Assembly (NCBI GenBank): GCA_002457295.1 | Contig: NTKF01000014.1 | Span: 1-29,637 of the forward strand | Source: Flavobacteriales bacterium MED-G22 | Lineage (GTDB): Bacteria; Bacteroidota; Bacteroidia; Flavobacteriales; Flavobacteriaceae | Reading direction: 5' to 3' | DNA length: 29,637 nt | Shown: piece by piece, positions 1 to 22,960 of the stretch | How the letters are laid out: each line of letters starts with the position of its first letter | How positions within the stretch are numbered: position 1 is the first letter of the stretch | Program-made: the position numbers and the translations under genes | The notes under the pieces: model-generated | The model's input: the letters and a program-made list of their open reading frames with translations, nothing else | Told to the model about the DNA's origin: nothing | Databases searched by the model: none

Positions 1-2962
1 CAATGCAATTTATGTTGGGATACCAGCATCCCAAAAACCAGGTATTTTACACACTCAAAATCAGATAGCTAATTGTACACTAGGAGTATATCTTGAGGGC
101 TTGCTACCTGAAGAAGGAAATACTTATAGGAAACAAAATGAAAGGGTAAGAAACCGGTTTTTATCGAGAGATATGTTTCAAAATGAATTGCACATTATTT
201 GGAATTTTCAAGCTCAATTTCATTCCACCCTAACAGAAGAATTAAAAATTCAAATTATTGGTCAAAAATCTGCCAATAAACATCAACAAGGTGCTGTTTT
301 TTATCAGCGCCCTCTGAAGTCTCAAAAATTCAGAGTGGGTAAGTGTGAGCTCGAAAAAACAAAAACAAAATGCAGTATTTCTGATTTGACCTATCAGGAA
401 ATGTTGGCCTATCAATGGGCTAATCAACTAAAGAAAAATGGTGCTTATCTCGATGAGATTGAAAGACATAAAGCTGCTCATTACTTTATGACAAAAAAGC
501 GATTTTCTTTTAAAAGGTTCAGATTTTATCTTGAAGAAGTAGATAGTATTTTTAATTATAAAGATGATGAAATAATAAAAGGATCTTTTATTCATGCAAC
601 TCTTTCAGATTCTGAAATTTTCGGCAACGGTTGGTTTTCCATTTCTGATTCAGAAAAGGAAATTCTTTGGCATAAACTTCATTTTTTTGATAATAAAGAT
701 AAACTAAAGGAGAATTTAATTCTTACTCATCAGCTTGGATATAGACAAGCCAGTAAAATAGCTCAGATCAATTTGGATCGTCGATATGCTCCTTTAAGCA
801 AAAAGGCCTCCAAAAATATTTTATTTTTCTTAAAGAAAGGTCTAGTATACAACATGGCTGTAATTTTAGCAGGTGTAAAAAGTTCTTTAGGTGCTTCTTG
901 GGAAAACATAGCTTCTAAAGATGTTGACTACATCATAAGAACTGAGTTGAATTTGTATAAATCTAACAAGGGAATGCAATTTGCCCATGCTTTAAATACT
1001 TTTTTAACTGAAGAAATGGAGCTAACCTCAATCCAGTATGCCAAACTTTATGGTGTCTACAGGTCAGACAATACCTTAATGTTAAAATCCAAATATGAAG
1101 TTAGTCCTAATGCTGATCGTGAAATAAATAATTTAAGGGTACCCCTCTTGAAGACGGTTGTATTTCAAATGCGCAAATTATTAAACCTTTTGATTGATAC
1201 TTATGGGCCCATTGATGAAATAAAAGCCAGTTTATCAATTGATCTTAAAATCAATAAATACCAACGTTATTTATATCGACTGGACCAAAAAAGATTGGAA
1301 GGACTGAGAGAAACCTACATGCAGAAGCTTGGTGCTATGGCTGAGAATTTAACTCCTTTAAATCTGACAAAATATGAATTGTGGAAGGAATGTAAAAATA
1401 CCTGTCCTTATACAGGAAAATATATACCCCTAGAAGAACTTTTTTCTGACCGTATAAAGGTTGTCTATATACATCCATGGGAATGGTCTCTAAACGATAG
1501 TATTTTAAATAAGACATTATGTGATGCATCATTAATAAATCAAATTAAGTCAAAAACTCCTGTAGAATATTTTCAAGAGAATGCACCTGAGCATTGGGAG
1601 GGTGTTGTTAAAAGAGCAGCCCGTTTGTTTTCTAACACTAAAGAATTCCCTTCGAGCTATAAAAAATTTAAAAGATTTGTAAAGCGTTATAACAAAAGAA
1701 ATGTATTTAAACATTTGATGGATGATCCAAATGCGATTAGTAGAAAAATTCAGCATTATCTTGAACGAGTTGTTCCTAAAGTTGGCGTTTCTGCTGGACA
1801 TACTAATGCTCTTTTTATAGAAAAGTGGCAACTAAAAAAAGTCTTTGAGCCGTCTGTTTATGAACGATATGATTTAGATTGGAGGTTCGCCGCTTTTGAT
1901 GCCTATATTAATGCTAACAGAGAATTACATTATTTTGAAATTTTAGTCGAGCAAAATAAATACCTCCCCCGATCTAAAAAAATTAATTTTCCTATACCCT
2001 ATGATGATTTTCGAGAAGATTTAAATTACCATCTGCATTCTATTTTGGTATCGCATAAAAAAGATAGTAGAATTCTTAGCACAAGACATAAAATGGTTTC
2101 TATCGATAAAACGGCAACCATAAATAAAGAAGTCTCAGTGCGCGGATCGCTTCATAAAGAATCAATTTATGGACTTCGACAACAGCCTCACTCAGAACTT
2201 AAAAGTTTTCATATTAGAAAACCTATAGAATCTTTCACAACTCTAAAGCAAGTTGAAAAGGTAGTTGATCCTGTTGTGAAATCTATCATGTTGAAGACAA
2301 TTCTTGATCATAATGGATTTAATGGAGATATTATTCCTAGGAATGCTTTTTCAGATTTTTCACAAAGTGGTAAAAAATTTCATAAAGTCTTTATGCCAAA
2401 TGCAAAAGGAGATCCAGTACCAATCAAAAAAGTAAGAATAAGAGAAAATCTTACAGGCACAGCTAAGTTGAAACAAAATTTAAACCAGCATGTAAACCTA
2501 AGAAAGAACCATCACGTAGTTATTTATAAAGACAACACAGGAAAATATCAAGAATATATAACTAGTTTTTGGGAAGCTGTTCAAAGAGCAAGAAAAAAGG
2601 AACCGATCTTTCAGATGCCACAAGATGGAGAGGAATTTGTGACCACCCTAGAAATTAATGATTTGTTCATTTTAGGAATAGATGATCTGAGTCATCCAAT
2701 CAGTGGAGAATCAAAAAGTTTTATTTCTAAGCATTTGTACCGAGTTCAAAAACTTTCTAATTTATTTTATGAATTTCGTTTAGCTTCTGATAATAATTTA
2801 AAAAATTTGGATGCTCCTTCGTATATTAGAATTAATAATTTTGGAAACCGAAAAACAGGTTGGTTAACTTATAATCCAATAAAAGTAAAAATAGATTTAA
2901 CTGGAAATTGGGTTCTTGATCAAGACCCAATTCCTAAACAAATAACAAAATCAATGGATTAA
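1..2962 (+). CDS. cas9: Cas9-family protein, apparently nuclease-dead (5' end outside window)
   Basis: Seen: the frame is open from base 2 to the TAA at 2960-2962 (986 codons), so the true start lies upstream. Residues below are numbered from the internal ATG at 101. Cas9 landmarks in order: QRPLKSQK in the REC region (nt about 305-330), RuvC-II region GPIDEIKASLSIDLK (nt 1205-1249), HNH region CPYTGK...NKTLC (nt 1402-1520), RuvC-III region WRFAAFDA (nt 1880-1903), then C-terminal FWEAVQRARKKEP and LYRVQKLSNLFYEF typical of the WED/PAM-interacting part of type II-C proteins. Catalytic positions are changed: RuvC-II Glu is Ser377 (AGT 1229), HNH Asp/Glu-His is Val455-Tyr456 (1463-1468), RuvC-III His-His is Phe596-Ala597 (1886-1891). 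RuvC-III Asp600 and the probable HNH Asn remain. Inference: it binds a guide RNA and DNA without cutting. RuvC-I is not visible. Family assignment is near certain; inactivity rests on alignment by eye. Confidence 0.95.
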   Translation, partial: NAIYVGIPASQKPGILHTQNQIANCTLGVYLEGLLPEEGNTYRKQNERVRNRFLSRDMFQNELHIIWNFQAQFHSTLTEELKIQIIGQKSANKHQQGAVFYQRPLKSQKFRVGKCELEKTKTKCSISDLTYQEMLAYQWANQLKKNGAYLDEIERHKAAHYFMTKKRFSFKRFRFYLEEVDSIFNYKDDEIIKGSFIHATLSDSEIFGNGWFSISDSEKEILWHKLHFFDNKDKLKENLILTHQLGYRQASKIAQINLDRRYAPLSKKASKNILFFLKKGLVYNMAVILAGVKSSLGASWENIASKDVDYIIRTELNLYKSNKGMQFAHALNTFLTEEMELTSIQYAKLYGVYRSDNTLMLKSKYEVSPNADREINNLRVPLLKTVVFQMRKLLNLLIDTYGPIDEIKASLSIDLKINKYQRYLYRLDQKRLEGLRETYMQKLGAMAENLTPLNLTKYELWKECKNTCPYTGKYIPLEELFSDRIKVVYIHPWEWSLNDSILNKTLCDASLINQIKSKTPVEYFQENAPEHWEGVVKRAARLFSNTKEFPSSYKKFKRFVKRYNKRNVFKHLMDDPNAISRKIQHYLERVVPKVGVSAGHTNALFIEKWQLKKVFEPSVYERYDLDWRFAAFDAYINANRELHYFEILVEQNKYLPRSKKINFPIPYDDFREDLNYHLHSILVSHKKDSRILSTRHKMVSIDKTATINKEVSVRGSLHKESIYGLRQQPHSELKSFHIRKPIESFTTLKQVEKVVDPVVKSIMLKTILDHNGFNGDIIPRNAFSDFSQSGKKFHKVFMPNAKGDPVPIKKVRIRENLTGTAKLKQNLNQHVNLRKNHHVVIYKDNTGKYQEYITSFWEAVQRARKKEPIFQMPQDGEEFVTTLEINDLFILGIDDLSHPISGESKSFISKHLYRVQKLSNLFYEFRLASDNNLKNLDAPSYIRINNFGNRKTGWLTYNPIKVKIDLTGNWVLDQDPIPKQITKSMD
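2906..2932. repeat. Near-perfect palindrome in the 3' end of cas9
   Basis: The arms AATTGGG (2906-2912) and CCCAATT (2926-2932) flank the self-complementary core TCTTGATCAAGA (2914-2925), with a single extra T at 2913. The element is coding (NWVLDQDP) and lies about 30 bases before the cas9 stop. It could be a protein-binding site, or an RNA hairpin shaping the 3' end of cas9 mRNA or ending a transcript from the opposite strand. No long T-run follows on either strand, so a simple terminator is not clear. Confidence 0.6.
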
Positions 2963-3095
2963 ATATGAAACAATTTCTTTTCCACATCAATTTGTATTGC
3001 ATGACTTTACAAAATTGAAAAGATATAAACACATTCATTAAATAAATATAGTGTTGTGGTTTGATTGAATTTGTGGAAAAGAATTGTTTTGTATT
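2962..3095 (+). repeat. Long inverted repeat resembling anti-repeat and CRISPR repeat
   Basis: Left arm 2962-2986 pairs with right arm 3072-3095. There are 18 consecutive Watson-Crick pairs broken only by one bulged T (2974), then two G-T wobbles (2967/3090, 2966/3091) and four more A-T pairs, for about 24 pairs in all. The loop is about 85 bases, far too long for an ordinary terminator. Sequence around the right arm contains GTTGTGG (3053) and TTGTGG (3071), which resemble the 5' ends common in type II-C repeats of Bacteroidota. The pairing is read directly; the CRISPR interpretation is inference. Confidence 0.85.
2962..3095 (+). ncRNA. Candidate tracrRNA / guide-like RNA for the adjacent Cas9
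   Basis: Read on the + strand, the order matches a tracrRNA: anti-repeat-like arm (2962-2986), a hairpin starting at the next base (2987-2996 with 3008-3018, one bulged A), and a weaker hairpin (AACAC 3028-3032 with GTGTT 3051-3055). A repeat-like segment (3072-3095) follows that can fold back on the anti-repeat. The two G-U wobbles in the long stem would be C-A mismatches in a minus-strand RNA, so + is favoured. No exact TAnnTTTG promoter is seen just upstream; processing from the cas9 mRNA is possible. Alternatives are a decayed tracrRNA/array remnant, or a minus-strand tracrRNA whose anti-repeat is 3098-3053. Confidence 0.45.
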
Positions 3096-3615
3096 ATGAA
3101 AAAATAAGGGATTTGTTTTGCCAAGTTAACCGAATAAAAAACAAAAAATAAAGTATACCCAGAAGTAATTTAATAAAGGTGCCTGTAAAGAATCCTATTA
3201 ATGCACCAACAGCTGATTTAATTGATTTTTTCACATCACGATTGCTCCAAAATCCACCAATAAAAGCACCTAAAAAAGGACCAATCAATAAGCCAAAAGG
3301 ACCCAGAAAAAGAAGCCCTACAACCAATCCTATAACACTGCCAACTATACTTTTTTTATCACCACCAAATTTTTTTACACCCCAAATGGAAATAAATTGA
3401 TCCAATACAAAGACGACTAATGCAATAAAAAAGGTGATGCTCAAAAACAAATAGTCCATAGGAATGGCTTCAATACTAAACACTAATAATAACCCTACCC
3501 ATGCTGTCAAAGGTCCGGGAATAATTGGCAATATACTACCTGCAATGCCCAGTAAAGCAAAAAAAAGACCGAAGGCAAATAATATTGTGTTCAATTGGGA
3601 TTGTTTTAAAAACAA
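3094..3615 (-). CDS. DUF456 family membrane protein
   Basis: A protein of 173 residues that is almost entirely hydrophobic, with about four to five membrane segments and many glycines, including G-I-A-G-S-I-L-P-I-I-P-G-P near the N terminus and repeated GxxxG-like stretches (VGSVIGLVVGLL, GPFLGAFIGGF) towards the C terminus. This pattern and length match the DUF456 family of small inner-membrane proteins, whose function is unknown. It converges on cas9 with a 131-base gap; its stop is just past the right arm of the inverted repeat. It is divergent from the lipoprotein gene at 3669. No partner or substrate can be inferred. Confidence 0.8.
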   Translation of the reverse strand: MFLKQSQLNTILFAFGLFFALLGIAGSILPIIPGPLTAWVGLLLVFSIEAIPMDYLFLSITFFIALVVFVLDQFISIWGVKKFGGDKKSIVGSVIGLVVGLLFLGPFGLLIGPFLGAFIGGFWSNRDVKKSIKSAVGALIGFFTGTFIKLLLGILYFLFFIRLTWQNKSLIFS

Positions 3616-3668: not shown

Positions 3669-4166
3669 ATGCACATTTTAAAACACAGTTTGACTTTGTT
3701 ACTCAGCTTACTGTATCTGTCAGTTTCTGGTTGTTTCTTTTTTGAAGAAACAAAAGTTTCTCTCGCAGAAATTAAAAAATCATCCTCATGGAACTCATCA
3801 GATCAGCCACCTAGTTATGAACAATGTGAAGGTATGGATGTCGACGCTCAAAAAGTATGTTTTGAATCTCAATTAAACACTATTTTTACGAGCTATTTTG
3901 AAAACAACCCCTTATCAGCAAATCAACCTTTAGAAGAAGAAATTATTCTTACATTGAAAATTGATAAAGAGGGTGTTTTCTCTTTAGAAGAATCTAATGC
4001 CTCAGCTTTTCTGCTTGATAACGTCGAAGGATTAGAAAATGAAATTTCCAATGCTATAGCAATGATTCCTCCAGCCCTTCCAGCGATTAAAACAAATGTT
4101 GGTGAACAGGTAGCAACGAAACTCCAGTTGCCTATAATGATTCAGGCTAGCCCTATGGAAGAATGA
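3669..4166 (+). CDS. Predicted lipoprotein of unknown function
   Basis: Encodes 165 residues. The N terminus is a lipoprotein signal: basic start, hydrophobic core (LTLLLSLLYL) and a lipobox ending SVSGC with Cys22. The mature part is acidic and contains two further cysteines, in YEQCEG and KVCFES. The C-terminal third (EIILTLKIDKEGVFSL onward) alternates in a beta pattern, loosely reminiscent of TonB C-terminal-like domains, but I do not recognise a specific family. Its last four bases overlap the start of ruvC (ATGA), so the two are translationally coupled and co-transcribed. The coupling suggests shared expression rather than shared function. Confidence 0.7.
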   Translation: MHILKHSLTLLLSLLYLSVSGCFFFEETKVSLAEIKKSSSWNSSDQPPSYEQCEGMDVDAQKVCFESQLNTIFTSYFENNPLSANQPLEEEIILTLKIDKEGVFSLEESNASAFLLDNVEGLENEISNAIAMIPPALPAIKTNVGEQVATKLQLPIMIQASPMEE

Positions 4167-4717
4167 AATCGGACTCTATCATACTTGGAATTGATCCTGG
4201 CACAACAATAATGGGTTTTGGATTAATTAAAGTGATGGATGATCAATTAAAGATGATTCAACTTCACGAATTGATTTTAAAAAAATATGATGATCACTAC
4301 CTGAAGCTTGAAAAAATTTTTAACCGAACCATTGAAATTATTGAAGAATATTATCCCGACGAGATTGCCATTGAGGCCCCTTTTTATGGCAAAAATGTCC
4401 AATCTATGCTTAAATTAGGAAGAGCACAAGGAGTAGCCATGGCGGCAGGGTTATCTAGACAGATTCCTATTACAGAATATTCTCCTAAGAAAATTAAAAT
4501 GGCCATCACTGGAAATGGTAATGCGAGTAAAGAGCAAGTAGCAAAAATGCTTCAGCAACTTCTATCTATAAAGGAGTTACCAAAAAATCTAGATGCTACA
4601 GACGGTCTTGCTGCTGCGGTTTGTCACCACTTTAATGGTGGTCAATCAAATGCAAAAAAAAACTATTCAGGATGGGCTTCCTTTGTGACAAAAAACCCTA
4701 AAAAAGTGCACGGCTAA
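4163..4717 (+). CDS. ruvC: Crossover junction endodeoxyribonuclease RuvC
   Basis: RuvC resolves Holliday junctions during recombinational repair, together with RuvAB. The 184-residue length is normal. The four acidic catalytic residues of the family are present: Asp11 in LGIDPGT, Glu71 in IAIEAPFYGKN, and Asp144 and Asp147 in LDATDGLAAAVCHH. The segment VQSMLKLGRAQG is also typical. The start overlaps the lipoprotein gene by four bases and hemW begins five bases after the stop, giving a three-gene operon. Despite the shared fold name, this housekeeping gene has no reason to be linked to the RuvC domain of the nearby Cas9. Confidence 0.95.
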   Translation: MKSDSIILGIDPGTTIMGFGLIKVMDDQLKMIQLHELILKKYDDHYLKLEKIFNRTIEIIEEYYPDEIAIEAPFYGKNVQSMLKLGRAQGVAMAAGLSRQIPITEYSPKKIKMAITGNGNASKEQVAKMLQQLLSIKELPKNLDATDGLAAAVCHHFNGGQSNAKKNYSGWASFVTKNPKKVHG

Positions 4718-4722
4718 ATTGT

Positions 4723-5847
4723 ATGGCTGGAATTTATATTCATTATCCTTTTTGTAAGCAAGCTTGTCATTATTGTAATTTTCATTTCTCTACCCAGCTG
4801 AAGCATCAAGAGGCAGTTTTAGAAAGCATGTTTTCTGAGCTCGAAATGCGTTCGTCATTTCTATCTAGCCCAATAGAAAGTATTTATTTTGGGGGTGGTT
4901 CACCCTCTTTGCTAAATTCAAAATGGATTGAAAGGTGGCTAGAATTAATTAGCATGTATTTTGAACTGCAACCCAAAGTAGAAATTACATTGGAGGTAAA
5001 TCCTGATGACGCAACCAAGAGCTATCTAAACTCAATTCGACAAGCTGGTGTTAATAGAATAAGTTTAGGAATTCAAACTTTTGATGCAGTGGCTCTGAAA
5101 CTCATGAATCGTATTCATACAGTCAAACAATCAAAAACTGCCCTTGAAATTACGGCAAATATGTTTAGCAATTATTCGATTGATTTAATCTATGGAATCC
5201 CAGACATTGCAATTGAACAGTGGAATAATGATATTAATAATGCTCTATTTTTCAACCCAGCGCATATTTCGTCCTATGCCTTAACAGTGGAACCTAAAAC
5301 AGTTTTAGCCCATCAAATTGATAAAGGGCAAATCAAAATGTCAGATGACCAAGAAGTGAAAATTCAATACGATCATTTAGTTGATCGACTTTGCAGTTTA
5401 GGATATGATCATTATGAATTATCAAATTTTGGCAAACCCAATTATTATTCAATTAACAATTCAAATTATTGGACTGGAAAACCGTATTTGGGAATTGGTC
5501 CAGGGGCACACAGTTTTGATGGGAAAAATACGCGTTGTTGGAATGTCTCTAACAATCAACTTTATGTTAAAAAAATCAAGGACAACGTGTTACCTCTAAC
5601 TAAAGAAACATTAAAACAAAAAGAGCGGTTTAATGAGTATGTTATGACCCGTTTAAGAACAATGTGGGGTATATCTTTAGAAGAAGTAACAACTCAATTC
5701 GGTGTTCATTTTTCAAACTATGTCGAAAAGCAGACCAACAAACATTTATTAACAAACAATGTTTATTGGGATGGGGACTCCCTAAAAATTAAAAAACACG
5801 CTCGTTTTCTCACTGATGGTATTGCTTCAGATTTCTTTATACTTTGA
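4723..5847 (+). CDS. hemW: Radical SAM heme chaperone HemW
   Basis: A 374-residue protein resembling oxygen-independent coproporphyrinogen III oxidase. The start MAGIYIHYPFC carries the radical-SAM cluster motif C-x3-C-x2-C (Cys11, Cys15, Cys18), followed by the glycine-rich YFGGGSPSLL and the typical EVNPDD, NRISLGIQTFD and SIDLIYGIP segments. HemW lacks the long N-terminal extension and extra residues of true HemN, and the short start here fits HemW, which binds heme and passes it to hemoproteins. It is the third gene of the lipoprotein-ruvC-hemW operon and overlaps the opposing dipeptidase gene by 11 bases at the 3' ends. Confidence 0.88.
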   Translation: MAGIYIHYPFCKQACHYCNFHFSTQLKHQEAVLESMFSELEMRSSFLSSPIESIYFGGGSPSLLNSKWIERWLELISMYFELQPKVEITLEVNPDDATKSYLNSIRQAGVNRISLGIQTFDAVALKLMNRIHTVKQSKTALEITANMFSNYSIDLIYGIPDIAIEQWNNDINNALFFNPAHISSYALTVEPKTVLAHQIDKGQIKMSDDQEVKIQYDHLVDRLCSLGYDHYELSNFGKPNYYSINNSNYWTGKPYLGIGPGAHSFDGKNTRCWNVSNNQLYVKKIKDNVLPLTKETLKQKERFNEYVMTRLRTMWGISLEEVTTQFGVHFSNYVEKQTNKHLLTNNVYWDGDSLKIKKHARFLTDGIASDFFIL

Positions 5848-7322: not shown

Positions 7323-7404
7323 GCGGGTGTGGTGAAATTGGTAGACACGCTAGATTTAGGATCTAGTGCTTCACGGCGTGGGGGTTCGAGTCCCTTCACC
7401 CGCA
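7323..7404 (+). tRNA. tRNA-Leu (anticodon TAG)
   Basis: The acceptor strands GCGGGTG and CACCCGC pair over seven bases with discriminator A at 7404. The anticodon stem is CTAGA/TCTAG with loop TTTAGGA, giving anticodon TAG. The T arm contains GGTTCGAGTCC. A long variable arm (around TGCTTCACGGCGT) makes this a class II tRNA, as expected for leucine. The CCA end is not encoded. Confidence 0.97.
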
Positions 7405-7419
7405 CTTGAGATGACTCTT

Positions 7420-22861: not shown

Positions 22862-22871
22862 TTCCCACTAA

Positions 22872-22922
22872 CGAGGAAGGATTTGACTGATTGCAACCTC
22901 GATAAAAAATTGCTAAAGCAGT
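22872..22922 (+). promoter_or_regulatory. SAM-II riboswitch aptamer
   Basis: P1 is CGAGG (22872-22876) with CCTCG (22897-22901). The loop carries GGATTTGACTGATTGCAA, and after P1 comes GATAAAAAATTGCTAAAG. These match the conserved GATTTaac..ATTGCA...GATAAA..GCTAAA pattern of the SAM-II (SAM-alpha) class. The pseudoknot P2 can form between ACTG (22886-22889) and CAGT (22919-22922), at the positions expected. SAM-II senses S-adenosylmethionine and is known from alphaproteobacteria and Bacteroidota. It sits directly before metK and the methionine genes. Confidence 0.9.
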
Positions 22923-22960
22923 GTTGCTTTAAATGAATCCTTCCTGTAAAAGCAACTTTT
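22923..22960 (+). terminator. Riboswitch expression-platform hairpin (terminator or start-site blocker)
   Basis: GTTGCTTT (22923-22930) pairs with AAAGCAAC (22949-22956), followed by TTTT and then the metK ATG at 22963. It begins at the base after the pseudoknot. Loop bases AATCCTTCC (22936-22944) are perfectly complementary to GGAAGGATT (22875-22883), which overlaps P1. SAM binding should therefore hold P1 and favour this hairpin, shutting expression; without SAM the long-range pairing should open it. The short T-run leaves open whether it stops transcription or translation. Confidence 0.7.

What the first reader, a model, noticed from the sequence alone, without database searches (positions are those of the whole stretch)
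1..2962. Naturally nuclease-dead Cas9 with an intact reading frame
Seen: at least 986 codons without a stop or frameshift. Four catalytic positions in three motifs are changed: RuvC-II Glu to Ser (1229-1231), HNH Asp/Glu-His to Val-Tyr (1463-1468), and RuvC-III His-His to Phe-Ala (1886-1891); only the RuvC-III Asp (1898) is kept. Known: in SpCas9 these correspond to E762, D839/H840 and H983, and RuvC-II/III substitutions stop non-target-strand cutting while the HNH His stops target-strand cutting. Inference: neither strand is cut, yet the guide- and DNA-binding parts are maintained, which suggests repurposing, for example as an RNA-guided repressor like nuclease-dead TnpB (TldR) proteins, rather than decay.
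Basis: partly seen in the sequence, partly recalled or inferred. Interest (0 to 1): 0.95.

Follow-up and report, generated by a model that had tools for sequence, protein, structure and literature searches.

The report
Domesticated dead Cas9 with fixed guide
Many uncultured Flavobacteriaceae carry, at one fixed chromosomal spot, a Cas9 whose DNA-cutting residues are replaced, together with a shortened tracrRNA-like gene and one or two conserved guide-like RNA elements but no detected CRISPR array, so this Cas9 likely serves as a built-in RNA-guided gene regulator instead of an immune nuclease.

Summary
The window's Cas9 has lost five of seven catalytic residues (RuvC-I read from its full-length twin). 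Of 235 listed related protein clusters, 97 have both nuclease sites altered (HNH His→Tyr in 94), 135 have all intact and 3 fit neither. The dead ones placed on a tree form one clade. They sit in one place (DUF456 beside 36 of 37 loci), without detected CRISPR arrays; Cas1 was found in none of 23 such genomes. RNA parts survive: a tracrRNA core with a shortened anti-repeat, and a crRNA-like element (window 3034-3068) whose 12-nt guide end and 15-nt repeat are identical in 24 of 24 group-1 loci examined. Repeat and anti-repeat still pair, with one two-sided A-U to G-C change. A LuxR-type HTH gene precedes dCas9 in group 1. Best reading: a domesticated, non-cutting, RNA-guided regulator. One candidate target (a putative sRNA gene upstream of aroB) is the best or joint-best guide match in five of five genomes of one subclade. 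Against: 11 of 24 longer copies are broken or truncated, 13 loci keep only the C-terminal end or less, and nothing has been measured.

The parts
2..2962 (+). nuclease-dead type II-C Cas9 (dCas9), 5' part cut off by the window's start
   Evidence: open frame of 986 codons; HNH_4 Pfam hit; solved Cas9 matches; full-length twin P0002
1229..1231 (+). RuvC-II Glu position, Ser here
   Evidence: aligned with live Cas9s
1463..1468 (+). HNH acid-His position, Val-Tyr here
   Evidence: His→Tyr in 94 of 97 dead relatives
1886..1900 (+). RuvC-III motif: HH..D reads FA..D here (Asp kept)
3034..3052 (+). predicted guide of a single crRNA (TTCATTAAATAAATATAGT); last 12 nt (3041-3052) identical in 24 of 24 group-1 loci examined
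3053..3068 (+). shortened CRISPR repeat GTTGTGGTTTGATTGA; first 14 nt equal the start of the repeats of 15 of 18 live loci compared
3094..3615 (-). DUF456 gene, conserved convergent neighbour
   Evidence: Pfam; next to 36 of 37 dead-type loci
3669..4166 (+). lipoprotein-like gene (label by eye), conserved neighbour
   Evidence: no Pfam hit; synteny
4163..4717 (+). ruvC (Holliday-junction resolvase), conserved neighbour
   Evidence: Pfam; 34 of 37 dead-type loci
4723..5847 (+). hemW-like radical SAM gene, conserved neighbour
   Evidence: Pfam; 34 of 37 dead-type loci

Best explanation
The gene at 2-2962 encodes a Cas9 whose nuclease residues are replaced, and it likely works, with a shortened tracrRNA and a single crRNA that would be encoded directly behind it, as a predicted RNA-guided DNA-binding regulator that would not cut. 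Shown here by sequence: the substitutions, their single-clade distribution, the fixed locus, the absence of a detected array and Cas1, the conserved tracrRNA core and crRNA-like element, and their maintained complementarity. Inferred: both RNAs are made; the crRNA repeat pairs with the shortened anti-repeat; the complex binds DNA matching the roughly 12-14-nt guide end and blocks or recruits transcription there, as engineered CRISPRi does. In group 1 a LuxR-type HTH protein from the gene just upstream would control the operon or act with dCas9. In the window the tracrRNA and HTH gene would lie upstream of base 1 and are inferred from relatives. Candidate target in one subclade (inferred): a putative small-RNA gene upstream of aroB.
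For: Family: 97 of 235 clusters dead, 135 fully live, 3 neither; dead rows form one clade with SH-aLRT 99, outgroups on the live side. Locus: DUF456 beside 36 of 37 dead-type loci and 0 of 26 live loci, ruvC and hemW beside 34 of 37 (the others' contigs end); my array finder saw arrays at 22 of 26 live and 0 of 37 dead-type loci; Cas1 in 0 of 23 genomes, control positive in 9 of 14. tracrRNA core upstream on the opposite strand in 19 of 19 dead loci that reach the cas9 start. crRNA-like block identical in 24 of 24 group-1 loci with diverged flanks; two units in 13 of 13 group-2 loci. Pairing: position 15 is A-U in 18 of 18 live loci compared and G-C in 9 of 9 group-1 loci; G-U becomes A-U at positions 1 and 7 in 10 of 10 group-2 loci; the internal U-U mismatch is kept. 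dN/dS 0.08-0.13 in the 11 of 33 comparisons with measurable dS. Fold: whole-length Cas9, Foldseek E to 2e-31, TM about 0.5. Bridge-helix arginines and most C-terminal blocks are kept well. HTH: PF00196 above cut-off in 2 of 6 tested (best E=3e-8), LuxR/GerE fold. Target.
Against: 11 of 24 longer dead copies are broken or truncated and 13 of 37 loci hold only the C-terminal end or less. Every pair with measurable dS includes at least one broken copy. Several basic residues invariant in live Cas9s are lost too, e.g. R243, R261, R290, K334. The crRNA-like element survives in 12 of 13 remnant loci that lack the tracrRNA, and in 4 of 38 genus genomes without any Cas9 match. Exact 12-mer guide matches are not above the reversed-pattern control, and no target was found for the type-1 or group-2 guides. 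7 of 294 natural AT-rich intergenic 19-mers match elsewhere as well as the guide does. In 7 of 10 group-2 loci the element is not among the tracrRNA's top four partners by my score. No HTH relative was found in group 2. No promoter for the crRNA was identified, and most records are metagenome bins.
Confidence: 0.72

Rival explanations
1. A dying CRISPR remnant: the system lost its array and adaptation genes, Cas9 lost catalysis, and all of it is drifting to deletion.
For: 11 of 24 longer copies are broken or truncated. 13 loci keep only C-terminal pieces or less, two of them fused in frame to the HTH gene. Patchy presence: 9 of 38 and 10 of 17 genomes in two genera have any match.
Against: Full-length open frames at 33-54% identity to P0002 with the same inactivating changes, low dN/dS, and co-conserved RNA parts with a compensatory change point to long selection after catalysis was lost.
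Confidence: 0.15
2. A guide-less complex: AATAAATATAGT is a promoter of a repeat-only RNA, so dCas9 would hold tracrRNA plus repeat without a guide and act as a structural or autoregulatory RNA-binding protein.
For: TATAGT resembles a -10 box by eye; the conserved block starts only about 14-19 nt before the repeat; no target is found in most genomes.
Against: The Bacteroidota box TAnnTTTG (recalled) that precedes most tracrRNA cores is absent here by eye; nothing like the block precedes repeats in the live loci; group 2 keeps a second unit with a different conserved guide end, AGTTAAAATTT.
Confidence: 0.12
3. An RNA-RNA pair: the crRNA-like RNA works by base pairing with the sRNA upstream of aroB, and dCas9 is only a chaperone or now dispensable.
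For: The crRNA element and the complementary aroB-upstream element both persist in G018, G019 and G023, whose dCas9 is deleted.
Against: The aroB element was not seen in the 16 other genomes whose aroB upstream region was held, although the crRNA element occurs in group 1 as a whole. Repeat and anti-repeat conservation needs the tracrRNA and Cas9.
Confidence: 0.1
4. A residual nickase or anti-CRISPR-like decoy, as proposed for phage II-C2 Cas9 with a dead RuvC.
For: HNH Asn kept in 97 of 97 and HNH His kept in 3 of 97.
Against: The HNH His or its acid partner is changed in all 97, and RuvC has at least one catalytic residue changed or missing in all 97, by the rule used to class them. The genes found are in chromosomal surroundings, and the scan of viral contigs found no relative.
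Confidence: 0.03

Closest known systems
Type II-C CRISPR-Cas9 of Flavobacteriaceae (live relatives)
   Same: about 40% identity over the whole length; same tracrRNA core on the strand opposite cas9; same first 14 nt of the repeat in 15 of 18 live loci compared
   Different: the live systems keep all catalytic residues, a longer anti-repeat and mostly an array beside cas9 (22 of 26), and lack the DUF456 synteny; the dead ones have one or two fixed guides and no detected array
TldR (nuclease-dead TnpB repressors)
   Same: inactivated RuvC, short fixed guide, domestication by loss of cutting; guides as short as 6 nt suffice there (PMC13418256, passages seen)
   Different: TnpB ancestry, phage or transposon setting, no tracrRNA (recalled); here Cas9 with two-part RNA in a chromosomal setting
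dCas12f with a sigma factor in Bacteroidota (recalled; not found in the library)
   Same: a dead Cas effector next to a transcription-factor gene in the same phylum
   Different: Cas12f; here Cas9 with a LuxR-type HTH gene; an ECF sigma gene lies divergently upstream in group 1 but is not part of the operon
scaRNA (Francisella) and tracr-L (Streptococcus) gene repression by live Cas9
   Same: RNAs with 9-15 bp of target complementarity direct Cas9 to repress (PMC8730458, passages seen)
   Different: there Cas9 stays a nuclease and serves immunity too; here the catalytic residues, a detected array and Cas1 are gone
phage-encoded II-C2 Cas9 with inactivated RuvC
   Same: naturally inactivated RuvC in a Cas9
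   Different: HNH apparently active there and phage-borne (PMC12669027, passages seen); here both sites are changed and the setting is chromosomal

Membership tests
type II-C CRISPR-Cas system | Cas9 fold of type II-C | tested here: met
   Foldseek best hits ThermoCas9, Nme1Cas9, CbCas9, GeoCas9 (model pLDDT 74.5, pTM 0.47); sequence tree
type II-C CRISPR-Cas system | catalytic RuvC and HNH sites | tested here: not met
   five of seven residues lost in the window's protein; both sites changed in 97 of 235 clusters
type II-C CRISPR-Cas system | tracrRNA gene | tested here: met
   core in 19 of 19 dead loci that reach the cas9 start, anti-repeat shortened; would lie outside this window
type II-C CRISPR-Cas system | CRISPR array | tested here: not met
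   0 of 37 dead-type loci, 22 of 26 live loci; finder needs 3 copies of an exact 22-mer and sees only the flanks held
type II-C CRISPR-Cas system | Cas1 adaptation | tested here: not met
   0 of 23 genomes, control 9 of 14; the genomes are draft bins
TldR-like RNA-guided repressor (works like) | nuclease-dead effector with a short fixed guide | tested here: met
   residues changed and guide ends conserved; that the guide is used is inferred
TldR | TnpB homologue | tested here: not met
   Cas9 by sequence and fold
TldR-like RNA-guided repressor (works like) | guide-directed binding and repression of a target | not testable with these tools
   candidate site only

The most novel reading that the evidence does not exclude
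A vertically inherited family of Cas9 proteins lost both nuclease sites once in a marine Flavobacteriaceae ancestor and became a native CRISPRi system: LuxR-type HTH partner, dCas9, trimmed tracrRNA and one hard-wired guide, aimed in one subclade at a small-RNA gene upstream of aroB, with the crRNA-sRNA pair outliving dCas9 where dCas9 was lost.
Probability: 0.4. Interest if true: 0.97.

Novelty: new variant of a known kind. Interest (0 to 1): 0.9.

Why it matters
RNA-guided repressors without cutting are known from TnpB, and live Cas9 can repress with short guides. A whole Cas9 lineage that lost both nuclease sites, its array and its adaptation genes, yet kept a matched tracrRNA and a fixed crRNA, would be nature's own CRISPRi. 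It would show how an immune nuclease becomes a housekeeping regulator, and the trimmed repeat:anti-repeat duplex (11-16 pairs) makes minimal guide-RNA design testable. The literature searches aimed at naturally dead or inactive Cas9 did not show such a family; the library lacks most subscription journals and preprints.

Tried and rejected
Guide targets: exact 12-mers in 10 group-1 genomes were not above the reversed-pattern control (13 non-self hits against 17 in the 9 genomes other than G013, which has 25 hits of its own). No seed match at a conserved place inside the locus. No ortholog pair with seed matches of 8 nt or more in both among 257 G017-G012 pairs, with only 398 kb of G012 held. 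Up to 3 mismatches in 10 type-1 genomes gave no shared site by eye. The viral collection gave 5 stretches with the exact 19-nt guide against 8 for the reversed guide. The idea that the conserved block is a leader was dropped because the live loci have nothing like it before their repeats. A scan of genome contigs with P0001 alone found nothing; the alignment found 63 loci. The scan of viral contigs found no relative. Rfam at gathering cut-off names only tRNAs at four loci.
Full report
What was checked. The open frame 2-2962 and all reported substitutions are present at the stated coordinates. Pfam sees HNH_4 and only a sub-threshold RuvC_III. The best solved match by sequence is CbCas9. The full-length twin P0002 (1140 aa) supplies the part missing from the window; its RuvC-I reads GLTLEPN, so the Asp is Thr. 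Five of seven catalytic positions are lost (RuvC-I Asp, RuvC-II Glu, HNH acid, HNH His, RuvC-III His). The RuvC-III Asp and HNH Asn are kept.

A family. Two protein searches listed 235 clusters of at least 600 aa (best 120 of 864 hits, best 120 of 121). In 97 both nuclease sites are altered, in 135 every residue is intact, and 3 fit neither. Among the 97, the HNH His is Tyr in 94 and the acid is Val in 86; RuvC-II Glu is kept in 52 and RuvC-III Asp in 13, so the window's Glu-to-Ser change is a subgroup trait. One of the 97, P0166, has otherwise live motifs and may be separate. A tree of 68 rows puts 33 group-1, 7 group-2 and one further dead sequence (L072) in one clade (SH-aLRT 99), with live Cas9s and outgroups on the other side (quick method, L025 is a long branch). 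This fits one loss of function followed by descent.

A fixed place. Of 63 loci found in named genomes, 37 are dead-type and 26 live. DUF456 follows 36 of 37 dead-type loci, ruvC and hemW 34 of 37 (the other contigs end), and DUF456 none of the 26 live ones. A finder that needs three copies of an exact 22-mer saw arrays at 22 of 26 live and 0 of 37 dead-type loci. Cas1 was found in 0 of 23 genomes with a dead Cas9 or remnant; the control rang in 9 of 14. In group 1 a LuxR/GerE-type HTH gene lies 68-104 nt upstream on the same strand in 8 of 8 longer loci that hold it whole (a ninth, L004, has part of it at its contig end). Pfam GerE passes its cut-off in 2 of 6 tested and is weaker or absent in the others. 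Two of the 15 related proteins carry source names with LuxR or CsgD among those shown, and more share them. The predicted fold is LuxR/GerE-like over about 65 residues (best E 4e-3). No relative of it was found in group-2 loci.

RNA parts. On the strand opposite dcas9, just upstream, 19 of 19 dead loci that reach the gene's start keep the core CTTATCACAATAAGGC...GCCG...ATCCCGCTTCGGTGGGATTTTT with small changes. The same core occurs in 25 of 26 live loci (L047 lacks that region). In 14 of 19 dead loci, by my reading, an exact Bacteroidota-type -7 box (TAnnTTTG; consensus recalled) sits 6-9 nt before the core, and the other 5 have near matches, so the RNA would start with a shortened anti-repeat. 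Directly behind dcas9 on its own strand is a crRNA-like element. In the window it is TTCATTAAATAAATATAGT (3034-3052) followed by GTTGTGGTTTGATTGA (3053-3068). In 24 of 24 group-1 loci examined (13 longer copies, 10 remnants and the window; L056 left out because its contig ends first), AATAAATATAGT plus GTTGTGGTTTGATTG is identical while both flanks have diverged. Group 2 has two units in 13 of 13 loci, with guide ends AGTTAAAATTT and AAGTATAGT.

Pairing. The shortened repeat and anti-repeat still match, with the same two-base internal mismatch as in live systems. I compared 18 of 26 live, 9 group-1 and 10 group-2 loci. Pair 15 is A-U in 18 of 18 live and G-C in 9 of 9 group-1 loci: a two-sided change, perhaps one inherited event. 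Pairs 1 and 7 go from G-U to A-U in 10 of 10 group-2 loci, whose duplex mostly ends after pair 13; L005 and L025 each have one extra mismatch. Scoring every place in each locus, the element is among the four best partners of the tracrRNA start, after its own antisense, in 9 of 9 group-1 loci but only 3 of 10 group-2 loci.

Selection and decay. Of 33 pairwise comparisons, 11 have measurable synonymous divergence, with dN/dS 0.081-0.133; each involves at least one broken copy, so the breaks look recent or may be assembly faults. Of the 24 longer dead copies, 12 are intact, 1 runs off its contig and 11 are broken or truncated; 13 loci are remnants. In two genera, 9 of 38 and 10 of 17 genomes have any match. 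The model of P0002 resembles whole Cas9s (pLDDT 74.5; Foldseek E to 2e-31, TM about 0.5). Of 445 columns invariant in 25 live Cas9s, several bridge-helix arginines (R59, R62, R71; domain label recalled) and most of the C-terminal blocks 901-1100 are retained, while the HNH acid (E644) and also some basic residues elsewhere (R243, R261, R290, K334) are lost.

Target. Exact seed matches are no more frequent than the control. But in the subclade whose guide is TTTCATAAATAAATATAGT, the best or joint-best non-self match in five of five genomes (up to 3 mismatches allowed) is the same site about 80-115 nt upstream of aroB (in G023 another site ties at 2 mismatches). The site matches 18 contiguous nt in G017, whose dCas9 is intact, and 15 in G004, whose dCas9 has one in-frame stop. 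It has one or two mismatches in G018, G019 and G023, where dCas9 is deleted. It looks like an sRNA gene running against aroB: a -7 box at the same place (exact in four of five, one letter off in the fifth), arms that could pair and a terminator-like end; the arms form in the computed fold of only two of five, the terminator hairpin taking one arm in others. The guide would pair with the strand that carries the sRNA's own sequence, the strand that CRISPRi blocks best (recalled). Of 1000 dinucleotide shuffles of the guide, 1 reached 18 contiguous nt in the 1.99 Mb of G017 searched; of 294 natural AT-rich intergenic 19-mers, 7 did, for reasons not checked. The site was not seen upstream of aroB in the 16 other genomes whose region was held. 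It is a candidate, not a demonstrated target.

Puzzle. The crRNA-like element also survives where dCas9 and the tracrRNA are gone: 12 of 13 remnant loci (the thirteenth contig ends before it), and 4 of 38 genus genomes without any Cas9 match, with 0-2 mismatches there. Remnants were found through the neighbouring C-terminal pattern, so this count is biased. Recent loss, or a Cas9-independent role of the RNA, could explain it.

Literature. Seen as passages: PMC12669027 mentions a phage II-C2 Cas9 with an inactive RuvC but apparently active HNH; PMC8730458 reviews scaRNA and tracr-L; PMC13418256 reports TldR guides as short as 6 nt. The searches, seen as listings, showed no doubly dead Cas9 family. 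The dCas12f-sigma system is recalled only.

Verdict. The best-supported reading is a domesticated, non-cutting, RNA-guided regulator with a hard-wired guide. Catalytic substitutions, clade, place, RNA elements and their complementarity are shown by sequence. Expression, complex formation, DNA binding and the regulated gene are inferred. That the bacteria are largely marine is read from record titles, not tested.

Noticed in passing
L053:9779-10297 and L058:8714-9292: In two remnant loci a deletion fuses the HTH gene in frame with the last part of dCas9.
   Followed up: partly
L031, L033, L040, L041, L044, upstream of dcas9: Part of group 2 keeps a second conserved non-coding block (about TTTTTTGCTTTGATTGTTATGCTAC) between the PPIase gene and the tracrRNA; meaning unknown.
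   Followed up: no
upstream of the HTH gene, e.g. L048:9506 and L034:9518: Three ACC...TTAC direct repeats about 21 bp apart, scoring above all 60 shuffles in 7 of 12 loci tested; possibly HTH operators.
   Followed up: partly
L072 (G065): Early-branching dead Cas9 whose tracrRNA-like region has a small inverted repeat where the anti-repeat would be, with two crRNA-like units.
   Followed up: partly
protein P0166: A Cas9 with RuvC-I Asp to Asn and HNH His to Tyr but otherwise live motifs; perhaps a second, independent inactivation.
   Followed up: no
G013, 25 sites: The 12-mer AATAAATATAGT occurs 25 times in this genome (one is the crRNA itself), several as aacattAATAAATATAGTaaacaaa, partly inside open frames; looks like a dispersed repeat.
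   Followed up: partly
L333:1501 (G013): An inverted repeat holding a 15-nt guide match lies behind a glutamine-synthetase-like frame (label by eye), similar in layout to the aroB element.
   Followed up: no
window 22867-22926: SAM-II riboswitch (Rfam RF01726) upstream of an S-adenosylmethionine synthetase gene and further methionine-type genes; ordinary.
   Followed up: yes
window 7323-7405: tRNA-Leu gene; ordinary.
   Followed up: yes
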